A stretch of DNA of 64,000 nt, taken from positions 2,181,501 to 2,245,500 of the forward strand of contig JAOTOL010001597.1 of NCBI GenBank assembly GCA_034440575.1. Direction: 5' to 3'. Under the pieces are notes generated by a model, which worked only from the letters and a program-made list of their open reading frames with translations, was not told the DNA's origin and searched no databases. Shown here piece by piece: positions 33,908 to 64,000 of this stretch (position 1 is its first letter; every line of letters begins with the position of its first letter). Source of the DNA: Imbricaverruca yamaguchii (Eukaryota > Arthropoda > Thecostraca > Neoverrucidae). The translations under genes and the position numbers were made by a program.

Positions 33908-34801
33908 GTGCCGCTATGCTGCTGTCGGCGCCCCTGTCGGCCGTCGGCACTGAGCAGCGCCTGCCGCCGCCGTTCCCGCCGCTGTTGGCGCCGCAGCTGG
34001 GCCGCTTGATGAGCGGAGGTGCCGACGGACTGAAGCCGCCGTCCGCCGCCGACCCGCTGCTCTACCCGTCCGCCTACCACCCTGGCGTCGCCGCCACCGC
34101 GCTGCTGCAGTTCGGCTACCAGGCGAGCGCGCCGGCCGGATACGCGCCCTACCAGTACCCGGCGTACGCCGCCGCCGCGCCGCGACCGCCGCCGCCGCCC
34201 GCCGAGCCGCTCCACCTGCCGCCGCACCGGCTGCGTCCGGTCGGCTTCCGCACGGCGCCCGGCAAGGAGGCGCTGGTGGCGCCACCGGCGTCCGCCAGGG
34301 CGGCGCCACCGGCGGCGCTCCGGCCGCCGGCCGACGAGCCGCGCGGCTTTCGGCCGCCCGGCAAGGAGGGCGTGCTGCGCGTGCCGGCGCACTACCCGCC
34401 GCTGAGCGGGGTGTACGCGCCGCCGCCGCCGCCCGGCGCGTACCCAGCCGTCGCCACACCGCCGCGCACCAGCGGCGGCGCCTCGGCGGCACCCCGCGGC
34501 GGTTTCAGTAACGGCGCGCCGGCGTCGCGCCGCGCCCAGCCCGCCGACGAGACGGCGCGGCCGCGCATGCGCGACACCGCCGCCGAGGCGACCAGCGAGC
34601 AGCCGTCGCCGGCCAAGCGGGCGCGGGTCGAGCCGGCACGGTCGCGAGCCGACCGAGCAGCCGCCGCCGCCGTCGCCTCCGCCTCCTCCACCGCCCCCGC
34701 CGCCGGTCGGACCAAAACCGACATGCCATCTGTCGTCAACAACGACAACTACGCGCCGCCCGAACACTTCCGGCTCGGCTCAGTCATCGAGCTTGCTGAC
34801 G
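33908..34801 (+). CDS. ATXN1: ATXN1 exon 1 of the coding set
   Basis: The acceptor TGTGCCCGCAG|GTGCCGCT places 8 nt of 5' UTR before ATG at 33,916. The donor is GCTGACG|GTAAGC at 34,802. It encodes residues 1-295, starting MLLSAPLSAVGTEQ, with proline runs and YHPGVAATALLQFGYQ, and ends in the first AXH strand (FRLGSVIELADG). Nearly all codons end in G or C. Confidence 0.88.
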
Positions 34802-36687
34802 GTAAGCGCTTTACACCCGCTCAGCGCTTGTGTGTCCGAGCCGCCGGGCCTATCCGGCGACTGGCCGCGCCCGGCGCGTGTCGGTTCTGCCTGAATTCTC
34901 GTCGCGGCCGGCCGTCGCCACGTGACCGGCAGTGGCTGTCGGTCGTCTGGTGTGCGCAGTCACGTGCCGTGTCACGCTCGCGTGGGACGTGCTCGGCGAC
35001 ACCGGCACGTCGGGCGGCCGGCGGCCCGCTGCCGGCGCGGCCGCTACGGCACCGGCTGGGCGTAAACTGGTGGGCGGCTGGACAGCGGGTCAACACGGAT
35101 GGCAGAGTGCATGGCTGCGGACGCCGGCGGCCGCTCACCTTCGGCACCGGTGCCGGCTGGCCGCTCGAGCCGGTCGGAGTCACCCAGTGCTAGAGAGGTG
35201 GACGGGTGGAAGGATCGACTGCGTGGCACGCGTGGCGTTTTGTCCAACATATCCACAAGTAATGTTTTTGTCCAACATATCCACAAGATGAAAGCGAAGT
35301 AACGTAAGTAATGAAAGAAATCGTTTCGGCCGATTTTAACAAATGTGTTTTTTGTTGTTATAAATCTTGATTGTATTGAGGACTCGAACGTTTTCATCGT
35401 GGATCATTTTGGAGATTCTTTAAAGTCATCCATGACCGAAAACATGGCACTCAAGGAAATAGTCCATTCCTCCTCACAATTAATTGTGCCCGGCCATGTT
35501 CGACAGGTCGGCTGAAGCGGGTGGAGGAGCTGCTGACGGAGGACTTCGAGACGTCGGCGGACCAGTCGGCCGAGCTGCGGCTGGACCGCAGCGTCGTCAC
35601 CCGGATCAACGACGTGGGCCGCACCGCGCACATCGTGTTCGCCGTCGGCCCGCACCGGACCGAGGTACGGCCGCCGTACAGGGGCAGGCGCGTCGCCAGC
35701 AGGGCGGGGTACTTTCCGAGGGCCGTCAGCCCCCACCGGACCGGGTACGGCCGCCGTACAGGGGCAGGCGCGTCGCCAGCAGAGCGGGGTATTGTCTGAG
35801 GGCTGTCGGCCCCCACCGGACCGAGGCACGGCCGCCGTACAGGGGCGGCGTCGGCCCGCACCGGACCAGGTACGGCCGCCGTACAGGGGCAGGCGCGTCG
35901 CCAGCAGAGCGGGGTACTGTCTGAAGGCCGTCGGCCCCCACCGGACCGAGGTACGGCCGCCGTACAGGGGCAGGCGCGTCGCCAGCAGAGCGGGGTACTG
36001 TCAGAGGGCCGTCGGCCCCCACCGGACCGAGGTACGGCCGCCGTACAGGGGCAGGCGCGTCGCCAGCAGGGCGGGGTACTGTCTGAAGGCCGTCGGCCCC
36101 CACCGGACCGAGGTACGGCCGCCGTACAGGGGCAGGCGCGTCGCCAGCAGAGCGGGGTACTTTCCGAGGGCCGTCGGCCCCCACCGGACCGAGGTACGGC
36201 CGCCGTACAGGGGCAGGCGCGTCGCCAGCAGAGCAGTCCGAGGGCCGTCGCCTTCGGATGCTGTACTGGCGGGCGCATCGCCAACCGAGTGGGATGTAGT
36301 TCACGGCCGGGTATAAGATGTAGGGCAGACGTGTGCGGCAGGTGTAGCGTCTTATTTTGTAGGGCACTCGTATGAGTATGGATTGAGTATAAATTGATGT
36401 GGATATGCGTGCCCTGTGAACCGACCCGACCCGTGGCTTGTGACCTGTCCCGACCCGACCCATGCCCTGTGAGCTGACCCGACCCGTGCCCTGTGACCCG
36501 ACATCACGGCCGTGTGCCACAGGTGACGGTCGAGGCACAGGTGGAGCACCCGTTCTTCGTCTTCCACCGCGGCTGGTCGTCGTGCAGCCCGTCGCGCACG
36601 GTGCAACTGTACAGCCTGCCGTGCCGCCAGCTGGCCGTGGGCGACACGTGCGTGTCGGTGGCGCCGCGCGCCGGCCCGGCCAACTAG
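33916..36687 (+). CDS. ATXN1: Ataxin-1-like protein with AXH domain (three exons)
   Basis: The spliced coding sequence is 33,916-34,801, 35,507-35,664 and 36,523-36,687: 402 codons plus stop. Residues 1-270 are low-complexity (Pro/Ala/Arg-rich) and predicted disordered. The AXH domain spans about 280-398: HFRLGSVIELADG, LKRVEELLTEDF, RINDVGRTAHIVFAVG, then EHPFFVFHRGWSSC, LYSLPCRQLAVGD. AXH domains mediate dimerisation and binding of transcriptional co-regulators and RNA; ataxin-1 proteins act in the nucleus with partners such as Capicua. The protein stops nine residues after the last AXH strand, so the C-terminal NLS/14-3-3 tail of human ATXN1 is absent, and there is no polyglutamine tract. 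Start chosen as the first ATG after the acceptor at 33,907. Upstream 5' UTR exons were not found. Confidence 0.9.
34802..35506 (+). other. ATXN1 intron 1
   Basis: GTAAGC...CGACAG intron of 705 bp. A two-copy duplication of GTCCAACATATCCACAAG (35,240 and 35,269) lies near its middle. No other feature seen. Confidence 0.8.
35507..35664 (+). CDS. ATXN1: ATXN1 exon 2 (central AXH)
   Basis: Acceptor GTTCGACAG|GTCGGC and donor CCGAG|GTACGG. The 158 nt keep frame with both neighbours and read GRLKRVEELLTEDFETS, ELRLDRSVVTRIND and AHIVFAVGPHRTE. The last 22 nt and the donor have been amplified into the following intron. Confidence 0.9.
35641..36238 (+). repeat. 81-bp minisatellite made from the ATXN1 exon 2 donor edge
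   Basis: About seven copies. Each contains CGTCGGCCCCCACCGGACCG AG|GTACGGCCGCCGTACAGG followed by GGCAGGCGCGTCGCCAGCAG and AGCGGGGTACTGTCTGA. The first copy starts inside exon 2. Every unit repeats the exon's last codons (VGPHRTE) and the GTACGG donor. The unit length is a multiple of three and the frame stays open, so use of a distal donor would add whole 27-residue blocks. Confidence 0.95.
36405..36510 (+). repeat. Degenerate repeat before the ATXN1 exon 3 acceptor
   Basis: Three to four imperfect copies of CCCTGTGA(A/G)C(C/T)GACCCGACCC end about 15 bp before the acceptor. No exon-derived sequence is clear here. Confidence 0.7.
36523..36687 (+). CDS. ATXN1: ATXN1 exon 3 (end of AXH and stop)
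   Basis: Acceptor GTGTGCCACAG|GTGACG. The exon reads VTVEAQVEHPFFVFHRG, then WSSCSPSRTVQLYSLPCRQL and AVGDTCVSVAPRAGPAN before TAG at 36,685-36,687. This is the C-terminal half of the AXH domain. Confidence 0.9.
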   Translation: MTVEAQVEHPFFVFHRGWSSCSPSRTVQLYSLPCRQLAVGDTCVSVAPRAGPAN

Positions 36688-37350
36688 CGCGCGCCGCGCC
36701 GCCGCCGTGTCGCTGTTTCCGTTAGTCGGTGTTGGCGCGGACGGCCGGCCGAGAGGCGCCGCCGCCGCGCCTCTGCGCGTGTCGCCGCACCCGCACTTCC
36801 GACGGCGGCGGCACGTCGCCACGTCGGCCGCGCGTGCTGTGTGGCCGCTGTGGCGTCCGGCGGCGGCTGCTGTGCGCCACCGGCTGGCTGTGCGGCGCGC
36901 CGACGCTGTTCGGGCGCGGCTGCCGACTGTGCTGCCACCTACCGGCGGGCGGCCGACTGTGATGCCACCTACCGGCGGGCGGCCGATTGTGCTGCCATCT
37001 ACCTTCGGGCGGCCGCGTTGGCGCCGGCCGGACCCGGCCGCGCGCCCTGTGATATTTTGTATCCGTTGTGTCGACCGTCTCCCCCCACTAATCGTGGCGC
37101 GTGCCGCCGGTCCGGGAGTTGGTGCGGCCGGGCGCGGGCAGCGGCAGGCTCGCCCGTCACGTGACCACCGTGCCGGCTCCACACCGCCCGGGCGCAATCA
37201 GACTTTCGAATTCTCAGGGATACACGCGTGCGATATCGGAGAGAGTGTTCGGAATAATATCACGCTGTGGTTTGGGACTTATTTTAATAGCTGTGACTAA
37301 TAAAGCGTATTATTTTTCCCAGTCTGTTGCAGCTGTGGACAATAAACTCG
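36688..37350 (+). other. ATXN1 3' UTR
   Basis: GC-rich at first, becoming AT-rich near the poly(A) signals. It contains a three-copy 30-bp repeat (CTGCCACCTACCGGCGGGCG then GCCGACTGTG) at 36,928-37,012. Confidence 0.6.
37299..37346 (+). terminator. Polyadenylation signals of ATXN1
   Basis: AATAAA at 37,299-37,304 and again at 37,341-37,346, about 610 and 650 bp after the stop codon, in locally AT-rich DNA. The cleavage site is inferred shortly after the second signal. Confidence 0.65.
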
Positions 37351-38035
37351 CATAATGCAGAGGGATGTGACTTTCCGATGCCTTTGTGCAGGTTCATCGT
37401 TTCGCTATGGACGGTGCCCCTACGAGAGATGGGGAACACGTGCCCCTGGATGTGAAATTTACCCTCATGCTCATAGCGGCGCCCAGTAGCAGCGACAAAG
37501 GCATTGCTGGGAAAGCATCTACTGAAAAATCGTCTCGACCCTCACATTCGAAATCTATGCTTCATCCGTATAGGGGAGCTGTTATGCTGTTTAAGCTGTT
37601 AGCTGCTAGGTACAGTTAGGTCGCATTCATAATTTTATGTCGGCACCTATTTTCCCAAGTAGCGAGAAGCAAAAGGTCATTGTATTTCATCAGTAAAAAC
37701 CTTGGTTTGGAATTGTTGAAACTGGGTGTACGTTCACTACCCTGCCTACTGAAACTGCTAATATGCCCTCAACTTTTCAAAGTGGAGGGCCATGCTCCAG
37801 TCTAGCGTCCCAATGAACGCACTGTGGTCAGTTCGAATGCGGGTTTGTAGACAAGGCTACAGATGATCGTCACGATCGCAGAGTTAGCGCGAGGATGGAC
37901 AGACGTTCAGCAATAGCCGCTTGGCTTCTGCGGAGCCGCCATCCACCGGTTTTTCGTCGATGGTCAGCCAGGATATTGAAGGACGGAGGCGGGGCGGCGG
38001 CGGAATGGCTTGCGGGCTCTGCACAAGTGCACTCC
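37351..38035. other. Intergenic DNA
   Basis: No gene recognised; the 77-codon frame at 37,386 is unsupported. Confidence 0.5.
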
Positions 38036-38345
38036 TCCCCATCGGTAAAAAAGTTTTGCCCCCCCCCCGGGCCCGGAAAAACAGGAGGGGGTTCCTAGTT
38101 AAAAAAAATTTTTTGTTTGTGGGTCGACTGCGTTTCCCTTCTTTGGTCTGGTTGGGTGGGGTGGTGTTGTCTGTTGTGGGGGGGGGGGGGAAGGTGGGGG
38201 GGGGGTGGGTGAGGCGCGGGGGCCCCCCCCCCACAACAACACCCCACCAAAGAAAAGCAAGCCGGGAGCGCTGATGGGTGACGGCCAGTGGCGTAGCTAG
38301 GATTTGCGTTACGTGGGTGGGGTTGGCACCGATTTGGAGGGGCCA
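38036..38345. mobile_element. Transposon-like remnant with G-run/C-run hairpin
   Basis: An imperfect inverted repeat pairs TTCTTTGGT...GGGTGGGGTGGTGTTGT (38,139-38,175) plus a G-run with a C-run plus ACAACAACACCCCACCAAAG (38,222-38,255). Just right of it is CAGTGGCGTAGCTAGGATTT (38,287), a terminus-like motif seen in DNA transposons of many animals (from general knowledge, not checked). No coding sequence. Confidence 0.45.
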
Positions 38346-39000
38346 CCTATCCACATAAAAAGTCCAGAATTTTTTCCACGATTTTTCAAATGAGCCCATT
38401 TATTGTTTTAAATAAAATATTTATGGACCAACTTAATTGCCCTACGAAGTCAGTTTTTTCCACTCACGTGGGCCAACTGACTTCCTTCCTGAATGAAACG
38501 TTTACTGTTTGCCAGCCTGCTTGCACAGATTTAAGGGTGTATGCCAGGGATGTAGGATCCTATTCAGTTAAGAAGGCTTTAGCCCCAACCAAACTTGCAG
38601 CTCAACCGCCCTAAGTTGACAGCAAGCCCCCCCCCCACGCTGGAAACTATTGTTCAATTTTTTTAAAACTCATCTGGTAGTTTCTCTGGGCTCATTTTCA
38701 TATTTCACTATGTTGATAGTTTTTGTCTACCATATGGTACCACTACCCACAAGCGTAGAAATCGCGCATCTGCGCTTTATTTGCCGCATATCTTCGGTTG
38801 AAACATCTTGCTGAGAATGCCACTGTGCAAAAATCAAAGTGCAACACGAGCACAATCGACGAGGATGTTGAAATGGCTCGTCGATAGTGAAGAATATTGC
38901 TTGGGGTTAATGTGGTTCGGAGATGCTTTTGGTTCTTCAGGAAAGTAATTTTGTCAGCATTAGCTCGACATAGTCGTCCATGTCTCCGTCCGAAGAACAT
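38346..39000. other. Intergenic AT-rich DNA
   Basis: No gene recognised. A C-run lies at about 38,627. Confidence 0.5.
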
Positions 39001-39860
39001 TAGGATAAGAATCAGGTAAGTTCAGAAGGAAAGACATTAAAATTTCAGTGTATTTAGCTTGTACGGAGAAGAGAACCTTGAAATGCAGAGTAGGCTCACA
39101 TATAAGCATATTATGTTCAAAATCAAGGTGTTGCTAGCATACTTGTCTGTGTTTGACTTATGGTTTGTAAACAGGCCCTTGGCCAATTTGTGTTCACATG
39201 TTAGTTTTGCTATTCTTTTTTGTGATTTGAACGAATTTGATGTTCATTTCATGGGAAATGAGCACTGAGGTATTGGTAATTTGGATTGAAGCACATGGAG
39301 GAAGAGGGGGTTTCTGAGCAGTTACAACATGCAACAAATATCTGTACTGTGTGGCCATACCAGTAACTGTACTGTTTACTGAGTACCCAAAATGAGCAAG
39401 CTATCCATATTTTAACAGTTCCTTTTGACGAAAATTAGCTAACACCATCCTCTAATCAGTAGTGTTTGGTTCAATTTGGCAAAGCAGAATATGTAGAAGT
39501 ACCAAAGCCATTATTGTAAAAAGCTGACTGGCATTTGAGGTAATATGCAGATGCATTTATATTGATAGTAATATGCATTTATAAACTTTTCACTTTTGAA
39601 CCAAAATTTGTGTGTTGAATATGGTTGCACATAGCTAATTTGTTTTTGCCATGCTGAAACAAGCCTGCATGCTGAATACTATGGTCATTTCACCAAATTA
39701 TGATGCACTATGTTGAATTTGATTGCACTATTTTTTATGCATGCTGTCCAACCAAATTTCTACAACTTGTGTCATATTCAGATGCAACATGCCGAAATGC
39801 CAAAATTGAATGTGTTTAATATTGAAATATGTGCAGTTTATTCAAACTTGCATGCAAAAA

Positions 39861-40043
39861 GGTTGGGGCAGGGATGGCCAAGTGGTTAAGGTATTTAACT
39901 TTGGGTATCAAAGGCCCCAGGTTCAACACTGGTGCTGCTCAGGACATTTCCCAATCCCACAGCCCACTGGCAAAGCTGGGTGGCACCATTAGCTGTGAAT
40001 GTGCATGAAGCATTTGGTAAACCACTGAATAAACCAACAACAA
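39861..40043 (+). mobile_element. tRNA-derived SINE, family A, CpG-stripped copy
   Basis: Aligns along its length with 32,951-33,139, and nearly all CpG positions there are TG or CA here (GGCCGAG to GGCCAAG, CCGGGTTCGAC to CCAGGTTCAAC, GGGCGGCGCC to GGGTGGCACC). Flanked by the 10-bp direct repeat CATGCAAAAA at 39,851-39,860 and 40,044-40,053. Confidence 0.92.
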
Positions 40044-40432
40044 CATGCAAAAATGTGTAGATTGCACTTGGTTTTTTACCCATGGGTTTTCCAAACAGGT
40101 TGGTTTTTCCCCTTCTCAGGTTTCTCCAAGCTTTAACATAGACATGCACCAACACATACAAGGTTGGACCTGATGCCTGCAACTCATCTGGGTCCTCTTC
40201 ACTTAGTTTCAGGTCACAGGTGGGCAGTGGGGTCTGCTCATAGGCTATGAAGCTGCCCACCCTCCAAATGTTCTAATTGTTATGTATGTATGCATATATG
40301 TACATGAGTCTGTATGCTATGTATGTATCAGCTCTACATCACATTCTTTGTTTGCTGGAATCTCTCCTTTCTTGCTTATTTGGTATAGCTGGATGCTACA
40401 TAAGCCAGATTAATGTAACCCTTCCTTTGTAA

Positions 40433-40530
40433 CCCAAGAGATTGGATGCTTCTTATTGAAATTATGCTTAATCAGCTTTAGTTTCACTGTTGACCAGTTA
40501 GTGAACATTTTTATATTGATCAGACATGAT
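40433..40530 (+). repeat. About 96-bp repeat, copy 1
   Basis: CCAAGAGATTGGATGCTTCT, TATTGAAATTATGCTTAATC, AGCTTTAGTTTCACTGTTGA, CCAGTTAGTGAACATTTTTA. The second copy is at 41,470-41,567 with few differences. Origin unknown. Confidence 0.9.
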
Positions 40531-40931
40531 ACATCTCTAACAGATGGCACTCTGACTCTGCTAAATAAAAAATCATAGTACTACCTTTGTTTTATACAGG
40601 CAAAACATGTGTAAATCTCATATTGTGACAAATTTAACACATGGTCTGGAGGGGGTTGGGGCAAAATCCTCCCACGCCTCTTGGTTTTTGTAAATATTTC
40701 ATTATTTCACTGGTTGATATATGCCATTCCTTTATGTGTACAGAGGCAGTCAAAGCACCCCAAGCACAAATAAACAAACAAAATGTGTACCTGCCAAAAA
40801 ATGTCCAGTGCATTGTTTAAATCAAGACAAATTAAAATAAGCCAAGAATGTATAAAATTAGAGGCAGGCTCACCAGAGAGAACATAGACTGGATGTGTTG
40901 GAACCCCTGAAATCCAAAATATTTTGGATAA

Positions 40932-63111
<22,180 letters not shown>

Positions 63112-63125
<14 letters not shown>

Positions 63126-63445
63126 GTGAGTCGGCGCAGGTCTGGTCTGGGCCGGTCCGGTCCTGCTGTCTACAGGTGAGTCAGCGAAGAGCTGGTCTGG
63201 GCCGGTCCTGCTGTCCGCAGGTGAGTCGGCGAAGAGCTGGTCTGGGCCGGTCCTGCTGTTTGTGGGGATGGGAGCGTGCTCTGTTAAGAGCTGGTCTGGG
63301 GTTGTTTTGGGATGAGCGTGCTCTACAGGTGAGTCAGCGAAGAGCTGGTCTGGGCCGGTCCTGCTGTCTGTAGGGATGGGATCGTGCTCTACAGGTGAGT
63401 CGGCGAAGAGCTGGTCTGGGACAGTCCTGCTGTCTGCGGGGATGG
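63112..63445 (+). repeat. Minisatellite made from the FAM135 exon 12 donor edge
   Basis: About six imperfect copies, spacing 50-75 bp, of (G)TGCT(C/A)TACAG|GTGAGTCGGC then GAAGAGCTGGTCTGGGCCGG, TCCTGCTGTC. The first is the real junction (GVLY). Several copies keep the strong donor CAG|GTGAGT. Confidence 0.93.
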
Positions 63446-64000
63446 GAGCGACGCTCGGGTAGTGCAGGGGACCGGGCGGAGCTAGCCCGGGGCGGTTCTG
63501 CATCTGGTGGGACTTAGCGGTGTCGGAGGACCCAGCTGCTGATGTGGTCTGTTCAGTGGTCACCTGGGCGTATTGACACCAGGCACCCCGTCGGCATGGG
63601 CAGCGAACCTTCGGAATGCGATGCGATCAGGAAAGCTTACGATTATATTGTTCTTGTGAACTGGTTTCTGACACACGTACACATCCTAAAAGCTGATCAG
63701 TATTTTAATGAGTTTCGAATCGCATCATGTTCGGAAATTTTGCTGGTCATGTAAACGGGATAATCAACACAGCGCGTGGCCGTGTTTTGGAAATTGGGTG
63801 AGCGAGGCGAAGTCTCTATCAGTTTGCGTAACTGTGTAGAAGTGATTGCCCGGGCTATGTGACCGACGCAGTCGATGCCCAAACGATCAAGTGATTGCCT
63901 GGGCGTGGTGAAATCACTGGCAATTGTGGTGGCCGTGTTTGAGTGATTGCCTGGGCGTGGTGGCCGTCTTCGAGTAATTACCTGGGCGTGGTTAAATCAC
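63446..64000 (+). other. FAM135 intron 12 to window end
   Basis: No exon recognised. GTGATTGCCTGGGCGTGGT repeats three to four times at 63,890-63,995 (about 45 bp apart). The array runs off the window. A tail-like GACGCAGTCGATGCCC lies at 63,865. Confidence 0.6.

What the first reader, a model, noticed from the sequence alone, without database searches (positions are those of the whole stretch)
33916..63445. Minisatellites repeatedly built from exon edges with their splice sites
In two unrelated genes, at least eight exon/intron junctions continue into tandem arrays whose unit contains the last or first bases of that exon plus its donor or acceptor. Each array uses the sequence of its own exon, so this is not one invading element. 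The native junction is always the array's exon-proximal copy. Intronic minisatellites are common, but systematic seeding at splice sites is not something I know to be described. Possible causes are slippage or break repair at exon boundaries (R-loops, GC step) or tandem duplication of AG|GT segments, as in models of intron gain. Possible effects are alternative splicing with many equal sites.
Basis: partly seen in the sequence, partly recalled or inferred. Interest (0 to 1): 0.93.

Follow-up and report, generated by a model that had tools for sequence, protein, structure and literature searches.

The report
Barnacle minisatellites grown from exon edges
In a barnacle genome many introns carry repeat arrays whose unit is a copy of the neighbouring exon's edge with its splice site; this was known from a few genes of the lancelet as 'mirages', and here it looks common enough to study as a source of new introns.

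Summary
The window is from a barnacle (best protein relatives Amphibalanus and Pollicipes) and holds an ataxin-1-type AXH gene and a FAM135 gene. Of 31 splice junctions, 8 have in-register tandem copies of the junction itself within 2.5 kb; a ninth is possible. The same structures occur elsewhere in this genome: 10 of 136 junctions in a myosin and kinesin sample pass the automatic test; on reading, one is spurious and one doubtful. Array starts are 3.9 times denser at -40..+60 nt of a junction than deep in introns (27 against 46 starts, p 2e-7); GC richness explains perhaps 1.5-fold. After that correction the excess of arrays that truly contain the junction is modest. The kind is not new: tandem repeats spanning exon-intron boundaries are the 'mirages' of amphioxus (passages of PMC3087553). 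New here are the lineage, the frequency and the measured bias. I read them as neutral minisatellites founded by small duplications across a junction. I found no significant sign that internal sites are kept for use; no RNA was available.

The parts
33908..34801 (+). AXH gene exon A1 (coding start inside), no array at its donor
   Evidence: Pfam AXH PF08517 E 7e-37 for the joined product
35507..35664 (+). AXH gene exon A2; its last ~24 nt and donor recur in the next array
35641..36234 (+). mirage array of the A2 donor, unit ~81, 7 further copies in the 36-nt test
   Evidence: TRF; junction copies
36523..36687 (+). AXH gene exon A3 (last coding exon)
41016..41107 (+). FAM135 exon B1
41721..41952 (+). 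FAM135 exon B2
43657..44271 (+). mirage array of the B3 acceptor, unit 56, 10 further copies
44241..44383 (+). FAM135 exon B3
   Evidence: orthologue alignment; Pfam PF12394 match of the joined product
44505..46099 (+). 21-nt array (about 77 copies), possible old mirage of the B3 donor (shares TCAGGTGGGC)
46621..46725 (+). FAM135 exon B4
47900..47999 (+). FAM135 exon B5
48505..48702 (+). FAM135 exon B6 (acceptor moved from 48489 to 48505 to fit phase and the Amphibalanus proteins)
48685..49597 (+). mirage array of the B6 donor, unit 60, 14 further copies in the 36-nt test
50830..50895 (+). FAM135 exon B6b, 66 nt in frame; present in the Pollicipes protein, absent from three Amphibalanus models; no array copies
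52534..53176 (+). mirage array of the B7 acceptor, unit 61, 5 further copies of the 24-nt core (6 in the 36-nt test)
53154..53309 (+). FAM135 exon B7 (acceptor moved from 53161 to 53154 to fit phase and orthologue length); GC donor
53278..53917 (+). mirage array of the B7 GC donor, unit 47, 11 further copies in the 36-nt test
55605..55733 (+). FAM135 exon B8
55698..55857 (+). mirage array of the B8 donor, unit 40, 2 further copies
56508..56948 (+). degenerate mirage array of the B9 acceptor, unit ~62, 3 further copies of the core, with an 11-nt array nested in it
56955..57091 (+). FAM135 exon B9 (one-nucleotide frame discrepancy inside)
57776..59447 (+). FAM135 exon B10, no array at its edges
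59802..59954 (+). FAM135 exon B11 (donor uncertain, 59954 or 59958)
62863..63125 (+). FAM135 exon B12
63121..63447 (+). mirage array of the B12 donor, units ~45-66, 4 further copies in the 36-nt test

Best explanation
These are 'mirages': minisatellites founded by a short tandem duplication (about 30-110 bp) whose segment straddled a splice junction, then lengthened away from the exon by slippage or unequal exchange. The duplication is harmless because splicing keeps using the junction attached to the rest of the exon, so copies pile up in the intron. This barnacle genome makes minisatellites at a very high rate (22-25% of the DNA sampled), more so in GC-rich DNA, and most of all beside exons. 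Shown: anatomy, private origin as far as tested, presence in unrelated genes, excess of array starts beside junctions. Inferred: duplication as the founding event, neutrality, and use of the exon-proximal site in RNA. Open: whether the junction is a real hotspot of duplication or mainly the place where arrays are stopped by exons.
For: Exact in-register junction copies at 8 of 31 window junctions, and in a sample chosen by protein family, not by repeats: 8 of 112 myosin junctions and 2 of 24 kinesin junctions; of these 10, one is spurious and one doubtful. In most of the curated mirages the copies reach nearly the far end of the array, as expected if the founding unit held the junction. Array starts at -40..+60 nt: 27 on 136 junctions against about 7 predicted by the deep-intron rate; ratio 3.9, binomial p 2e-7; resampling 29 contig groups gives 3.3-6.9, but on a fixed per-bp basis that is too high for the 12 short kinesin loci. 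In the myosin part donors and acceptors are alike: 11 starts on 57 and 11 on 55. Array ends that face away from the exon do not pile up there (3 in -40..+60). Amphibalanus proteins run through the FAM135 joins B2-B3, B6-B7, B7-B8 and B8-B9 without added units. No reading-frame preference and no significant keeping of the splice motif in copies (25 mismatches of 368 against 38 expected, p 0.12), as expected of neutral copies.
Against: Counting only arrays that truly contain the junction, the excess over uniform starts is modest: 8 against 1.9-3.2 expected, or 2.8-4.8 after a GC factor of 1.5 (P 0.0007-0.017 and 0.008-0.11). Junction cores have copies in 7% of cases, intron cores in 19%, so junctions are not the commonest place for an array. 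Many near-junction arrays begin 0-40 nt inside the intron and hold little or no exon sequence. Junctions in the sample were called by a simple weight matrix and some are wrong. In the Pollicipes protein the join B6-B7 holds some two dozen extra residues; they match a separate small exon (B6b), not array units. One assembly, no RNA, no second individual.
Confidence: 0.72

Rival explanations
1. Barrier model: arrays arise anywhere in introns and creep outward by taking in flanking sequence; purifying selection stops them at exons, so their edges pile up there and sometimes include a little exon. No hotspot at splice sites is needed.
For: The share of junctions with an array start in -40..+60 (26 of 136, 19%) equals the mean share of intron cores that have copies (19%, listed bins 15-26%), which is what blocked arrays would give. 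Most such starts lie on the intron side (20 of 27; list).
Against: In most curated mirages junction copies run nearly to the far end of the array; late arrival at the exon would leave far units without it unless the whole array was homogenised. Near arrays are not clearly longer than far ones (mean 441 against 321, 23 and 43 arrays, p 0.12), though the direction fits this rival.
Confidence: 0.4
2. Chance plus GC: a genome with about a quarter of its gene-bearing DNA in minisatellites that favour GC-rich flanks will have some on GC-rich exon edges.
For: Array starts are commoner in GC-rich flanks (odds 0.018 below 45% GC to 0.101 above 65%), and exon edges are richer than introns (0.584 against 0.504). 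Random placement without regard to coding gives 7.6 spanned junctions in the window.
Against: I estimate the GC effect as about 1.5-fold, against 3.9-fold observed (the 1.5 is my own estimate from its table, not a fitted value).
Confidence: 0.2
3. Functional splice-site banks: copies are kept as spare or competing sites that tune or diversify splicing.
For: Many internal copies carry sites that score the same as the native one.
Against: 3 of 16 units divide by three; the splice motif in copies is not significantly better kept than the rest (earlier counts that used the motif to find copies had suggested otherwise); Amphibalanus proteins show no inserted units at the joins seen.
Confidence: 0.06
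4. An invading element or an assembly artefact.
For: Arrays are hard to assemble; one exon shows a one-nucleotide frame discrepancy.
Against: Each array copies its own exon and the 8 window cores were found nowhere else in 294 kb fetched (a genome-wide search of one unit did not complete); units differ from one another by several per cent; the same anatomy recurs in unrelated genes on other contigs.
Confidence: 0.02

Closest known systems
'Mirages' of amphioxus (Adh, globins BflGb6 and BflGb9, troponin C, PGBD5)
   Same: Minisatellite-like tandem repeats whose unit spans an exon-intron boundary; donor or acceptor side; many copies hold AG/GT signals; the authentic junction is at the exon; unit lengths 10-160 bp reported there (PMC3087553 passages; PMC3902484 passage), about 31-106 here.
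   Different: Another phylum (barnacle). Found at some 6-8% of sampled junctions of unrelated genes and measured against intron background, instead of single genes. RT-PCR and somatic instability, reported for amphioxus, are untested here.
Intron gain by tandem genomic duplication of AG/GT segments (Rogers 1989; Zhuo 2007; Gao and Lynch 2009; potato RdRp case PMC4974935)
   Same: Tandem duplication that copies splice signals.
   Different: There the duplicated piece becomes a new intron inside an exon; here the copies lie in an existing intron. Known to me from text and reference list of PMC3087553 and a search listing; these papers were not read.
Ordinary intronic minisatellites (VNTRs)
   Same: Unit sizes, divergence between units, preference for GC-rich DNA (general knowledge).
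   Different: Ordinary ones need not include the junction.

Membership tests
mirage (amphioxus sense) | minisatellite-like tandem repeat | tested here: met
   TRF arrays; units 31-106 in the 16 curated cases, one of them (C1376) a single spaced copy
mirage (amphioxus sense) | unit spans an exon-intron boundary | tested here: met
   24-nt cores copied in register at 8 of 31 window junctions; FAM135 joins B2-B3, B6-B7, B7-B8, B8-B9 fixed by barnacle orthologues; the A2 donor rests on the Pfam AXH match, the B12 donor on an alignment that ends there
mirage (amphioxus sense) | both 5' and 3' boundaries can be duplicated | tested here: met
   window: 5 donors, 3 acceptors
mirage (amphioxus sense) | many copies keep AG/GT signals | tested here: met
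   90 of 94 copies keep the native dinucleotide (the search for copies included these positions, so the share is biased upward)
mirage (amphioxus sense) | normal mRNA splicing is not disturbed | not testable with these tools
   only indirect: orthologue proteins continue across four of the joins
mirage (amphioxus sense) | length polymorphism and somatic instability | not testable with these tools
   one assembly only
intron gain by tandem genomic duplication | a new intron position created by the duplication | not tested
   intron positions were not compared across species

The most novel reading that the evidence does not exclude
In this barnacle, splice junctions are hotspots of small tandem duplication, so that several per cent of all exon edges, probably many thousands genome-wide, sit at the head of a minisatellite of their own copies. 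The genome would thus hold a standing supply of duplicated splice sites for intron gain, intron sliding and exon lengthening.
Probability: 0.33. Interest if true: 0.82.

Novelty: new member of a known kind. Interest (0 to 1): 0.58.

Why it matters
Models of intron gain by duplication of splice-site segments rest on few cases. A genome in which exon edges are copied in tandem at several per cent of junctions would let one watch the steps: birth, growth, use of an internal site, frame change, new intron position. It also warns annotators: copies carry splice sites as strong as the native one, so gene models and RNA alignments can go wrong there. The density of minisatellites in general, about a quarter of the gene-bearing DNA sampled, is itself high and points to a strong duplication or slippage process in this barnacle.

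Tried and rejected
Splice motif kept by selection in the copies: a first count gave 90 of 94 site dinucleotides kept against 1342 of 1692 other intronic dinucleotides, and a position profile peaked at -1..+3. Those counts used the motif to find the copies. With the motif left out of the search, 25 mismatches of 368 against 38 expected, permutation p 0.12 pooled and 0.21 by array; rejected as evidence.

Chance in the window: random placement with no coding limit gives a mean of 7.6 spanned junctions (7.0), so the plain overlap count says nothing; only the count with exons respected does.

Exonic depth: all 16 curated arrays hold at most 36 exonic nt; probability 0.003 under uniform depth for all 16, 0.05 for the 8 outside the window. 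For that test I set the units of B9, B12 and C388 to 62, 50 and 31 from the TRF rows, where the automatic spacing gave 127, 58 and 93. With 93 for C388, 4 instead of 3 of 16 units would divide by three. Suggestive only.

Sample: of 72 myosin matches 60 had enough fetched flank and were used; 112 junctions were called by a home-made weight matrix (the first version over-called GC donors, and was corrected). Of 126 kinesin matches listed 12 were fetched, on 12 contigs, chosen by hand from E-value, length and interior position before the DNA was seen. Reading the hits: the myosin C1272:103160 'donor' hit is spurious, C1082:461419 is doubtful, the donor of C1082:448443 was called 7 nt off, and an acceptor copy at C1082:448443 seen by eye was missed by the test and not recovered by the 36-nt test either.

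Against 10 of 136 the window is still richer (Fisher p 0.0067; 0.0045 before).

Fold prediction, structure search and RNA families were not used; they do not bear on the question. Positions 1-33900 of the window were not searched for genes. The original mirage paper (PMC117041) is not held.
Full report
What the window is. The window is a 64 kb piece of contig C1364 of a 767 Mb assembly in 1430 contigs. The FAM135-like product built from its exons has its best relatives in barnacles: Amphibalanus amphitrite (74% identity over 44% of the query) and Pollicipes pollicipes (65% over 43%). I infer that it is neither of these species. The first gene in the finding codes for an AXH domain (Pfam PF08517, E 7e-37), the second for FAM135 (PF12394, E 3e-17).

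Exon edges. I placed 3 exons of the AXH gene and 12 of FAM135 and compared FAM135 with four barnacle proteins by translated alignment. Three Amphibalanus proteins run in register through the joins B6-B7, B7-B8 and B8-B9, and two of them also through B2-B3 (the third lacks that part). The comparison moved the B7 acceptor from 53161 to 53154 and the B6 acceptor from 48489 to 48505, and the Pollicipes protein revealed a further 66-nt exon, B6b, at 50830-50895. The B12 donor is supported only by an alignment that ends there, the A2 donor by the Pfam AXH match. The B7 donor is a GC donor. The donor of B11 remains uncertain, and B9 has a one-nucleotide frame discrepancy that may be a homopolymer error.

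The observation. Of 31 junctions, 8 have in-register copies of the 24-nt junction core within 2.5 kb: 5 donors and 3 acceptors, with 2 to 13 further copies each. A ninth, the B3 donor, is possible. The TRF arrays alone span 6 of 31 junctions. In each of the 8 the native junction is the copy joined to the exon, and the exonic share of the unit is 10-36 nt. The 8 cores are absent from 294 kb of DNA fetched elsewhere in the genome at 20/24 identity. So the arrays are, as far as tested, private copies of their own exon edge.

Is it more than chance? In the window, random placement that respects exons gives a mean of 1.1-1.6 spanned junctions against 6 observed; placement that ignores exons gives 7.6. 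But the window was chosen for its arrays. I therefore took exons by protein family, blind to repeats. The myosin-head family gave 72 exon matches, of which 60 could be used, with 112 junctions; the kinesin family gave 126, of which 12 were fetched, with 24 junctions. The junction-core test is positive for 8 of 112 and 2 of 24. By eye one of these is spurious and one doubtful, and one more was missed. Clear cases are the donors at C1307:909175 (unit 39, about 20 copies), C1082:448443 (unit 79), C1274:869371 (unit 67) and kinesin loci L057 (unit 52) and L064 (unit 55), and the acceptor at C1413:2360307 (unit 34). The window (8 of 31) is richer than the sample (10 of 136; Fisher p 0.0067).

Enrichment. 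Array starts that face the exon fall at -40..+60 nt of a junction 27 times on 136 junctions (26 junctions), 3.9 times the density at 200-1000 nt in the intron (46 starts; binomial p 2e-7). Seven of the 27 lie on the exon side, 20 on the intron side. Resampling contig groups gives 3.3-6.9, but it assumed 800 nt of deep intron for every group, which the 12 short kinesin loci do not have, so that range is too high. In the myosin part, array ends facing the other way do not pile up (3 in the same 100 nt), and arrays with at least 3 copies and 80 nt show the same excess (18 against 31 starts, ratio 4.6). Array starts favour GC-rich flanks and exon edges are GC-richer (0.584 against 0.504); from the table I estimate that this gives about 1.5-fold. 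For arrays that truly contain the junction, 8 compares with 1.9-3.2 expected, or 2.8-4.8 with the GC factor: an excess, but not decisive. Against a special role of the junction stands the copy profile: copies are found for 19% of intron cores, 7% of junction cores, 4% at 20 nt and under 2% at 40-100 nt inside exons.

How it most likely works. A short segment across a junction is duplicated in tandem. The copy lies in the intron and does no harm while the site next to the exon is used. The pair becomes an array by slippage or unequal exchange. Junction copies run nearly to the far end of most curated arrays, which fits founding at the junction better than late arrival from the intron. The barrier model, in which arrays creep through introns until exons stop them, explains the many arrays that begin 0-40 nt inside the intron and fits the number of blocked arrays; both may act. 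Nothing I tested shows use of the internal sites: 3 of 16 units are multiples of three, the splice motif in copies is not significantly spared from change, and the Amphibalanus proteins show no inserted units at the joins seen. RNA would be needed.

What is known. [quoted passage not shown] A passage of PMC3902484 adds PGBD5 and cites troponin C. The structures here meet the anatomical features of a mirage; the RNA and instability features could not be tested. My searches (listings only) and passages of three barnacle genome papers (PMC8917513, PMC8270832, PMC11331182) gave no description of it in barnacles or other arthropods; the library holds only openly licensed papers and the longer listings were cut. 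PMC8270832 reports at least 40% mostly novel repeats in Balanus improvisus (passages), which agrees with a repeat-rich barnacle genome.

Verdict. Real, not unique to these genes, and of a known kind found in a new lineage at high frequency. The claim of systematic seeding at splice sites is plausible and partly supported; a GC-matched, RNA-annotated genome-wide count would settle it.

Noticed in passing
window 1-64000 and L033-L052: Minisatellite arrays of period >=10 cover 22% of the window (57 merged arrays) and 25% of 186 kb of myosin-gene DNA, a high density.
   Followed up: partly
50830-50895: A 66-nt in-frame exon (B6b) of FAM135 lies between two arrays; its product is in the Pollicipes protein but not in three Amphibalanus models, so it may be a cassette exon.
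   Followed up: partly
53309-53314: The intron after exon B7 begins with GC (AGG|gcaggt), and all 11 array copies in the 36-nt test keep the GC donor.
   Followed up: partly
about 56995-57005: Exon B9 shows a one-nucleotide frame change against barnacle orthologues in a run of C; probable assembly or sequencing error, or a real defect.
   Followed up: no
58113-58296: Exon B10 itself holds an 81-nt coding tandem repeat (2.3 copies) in frame.
   Followed up: no
60516-60640; L022 near the donor at C1376:1866792: Similar tRNA-like sequences at both places look by eye like a tRNA-derived short interspersed element; ARAGORN finds no tRNA gene in the window.
   Followed up: no
1-33900: Thirty-one merged arrays in the half of the window in which genes were not sought.
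   Followed up: no
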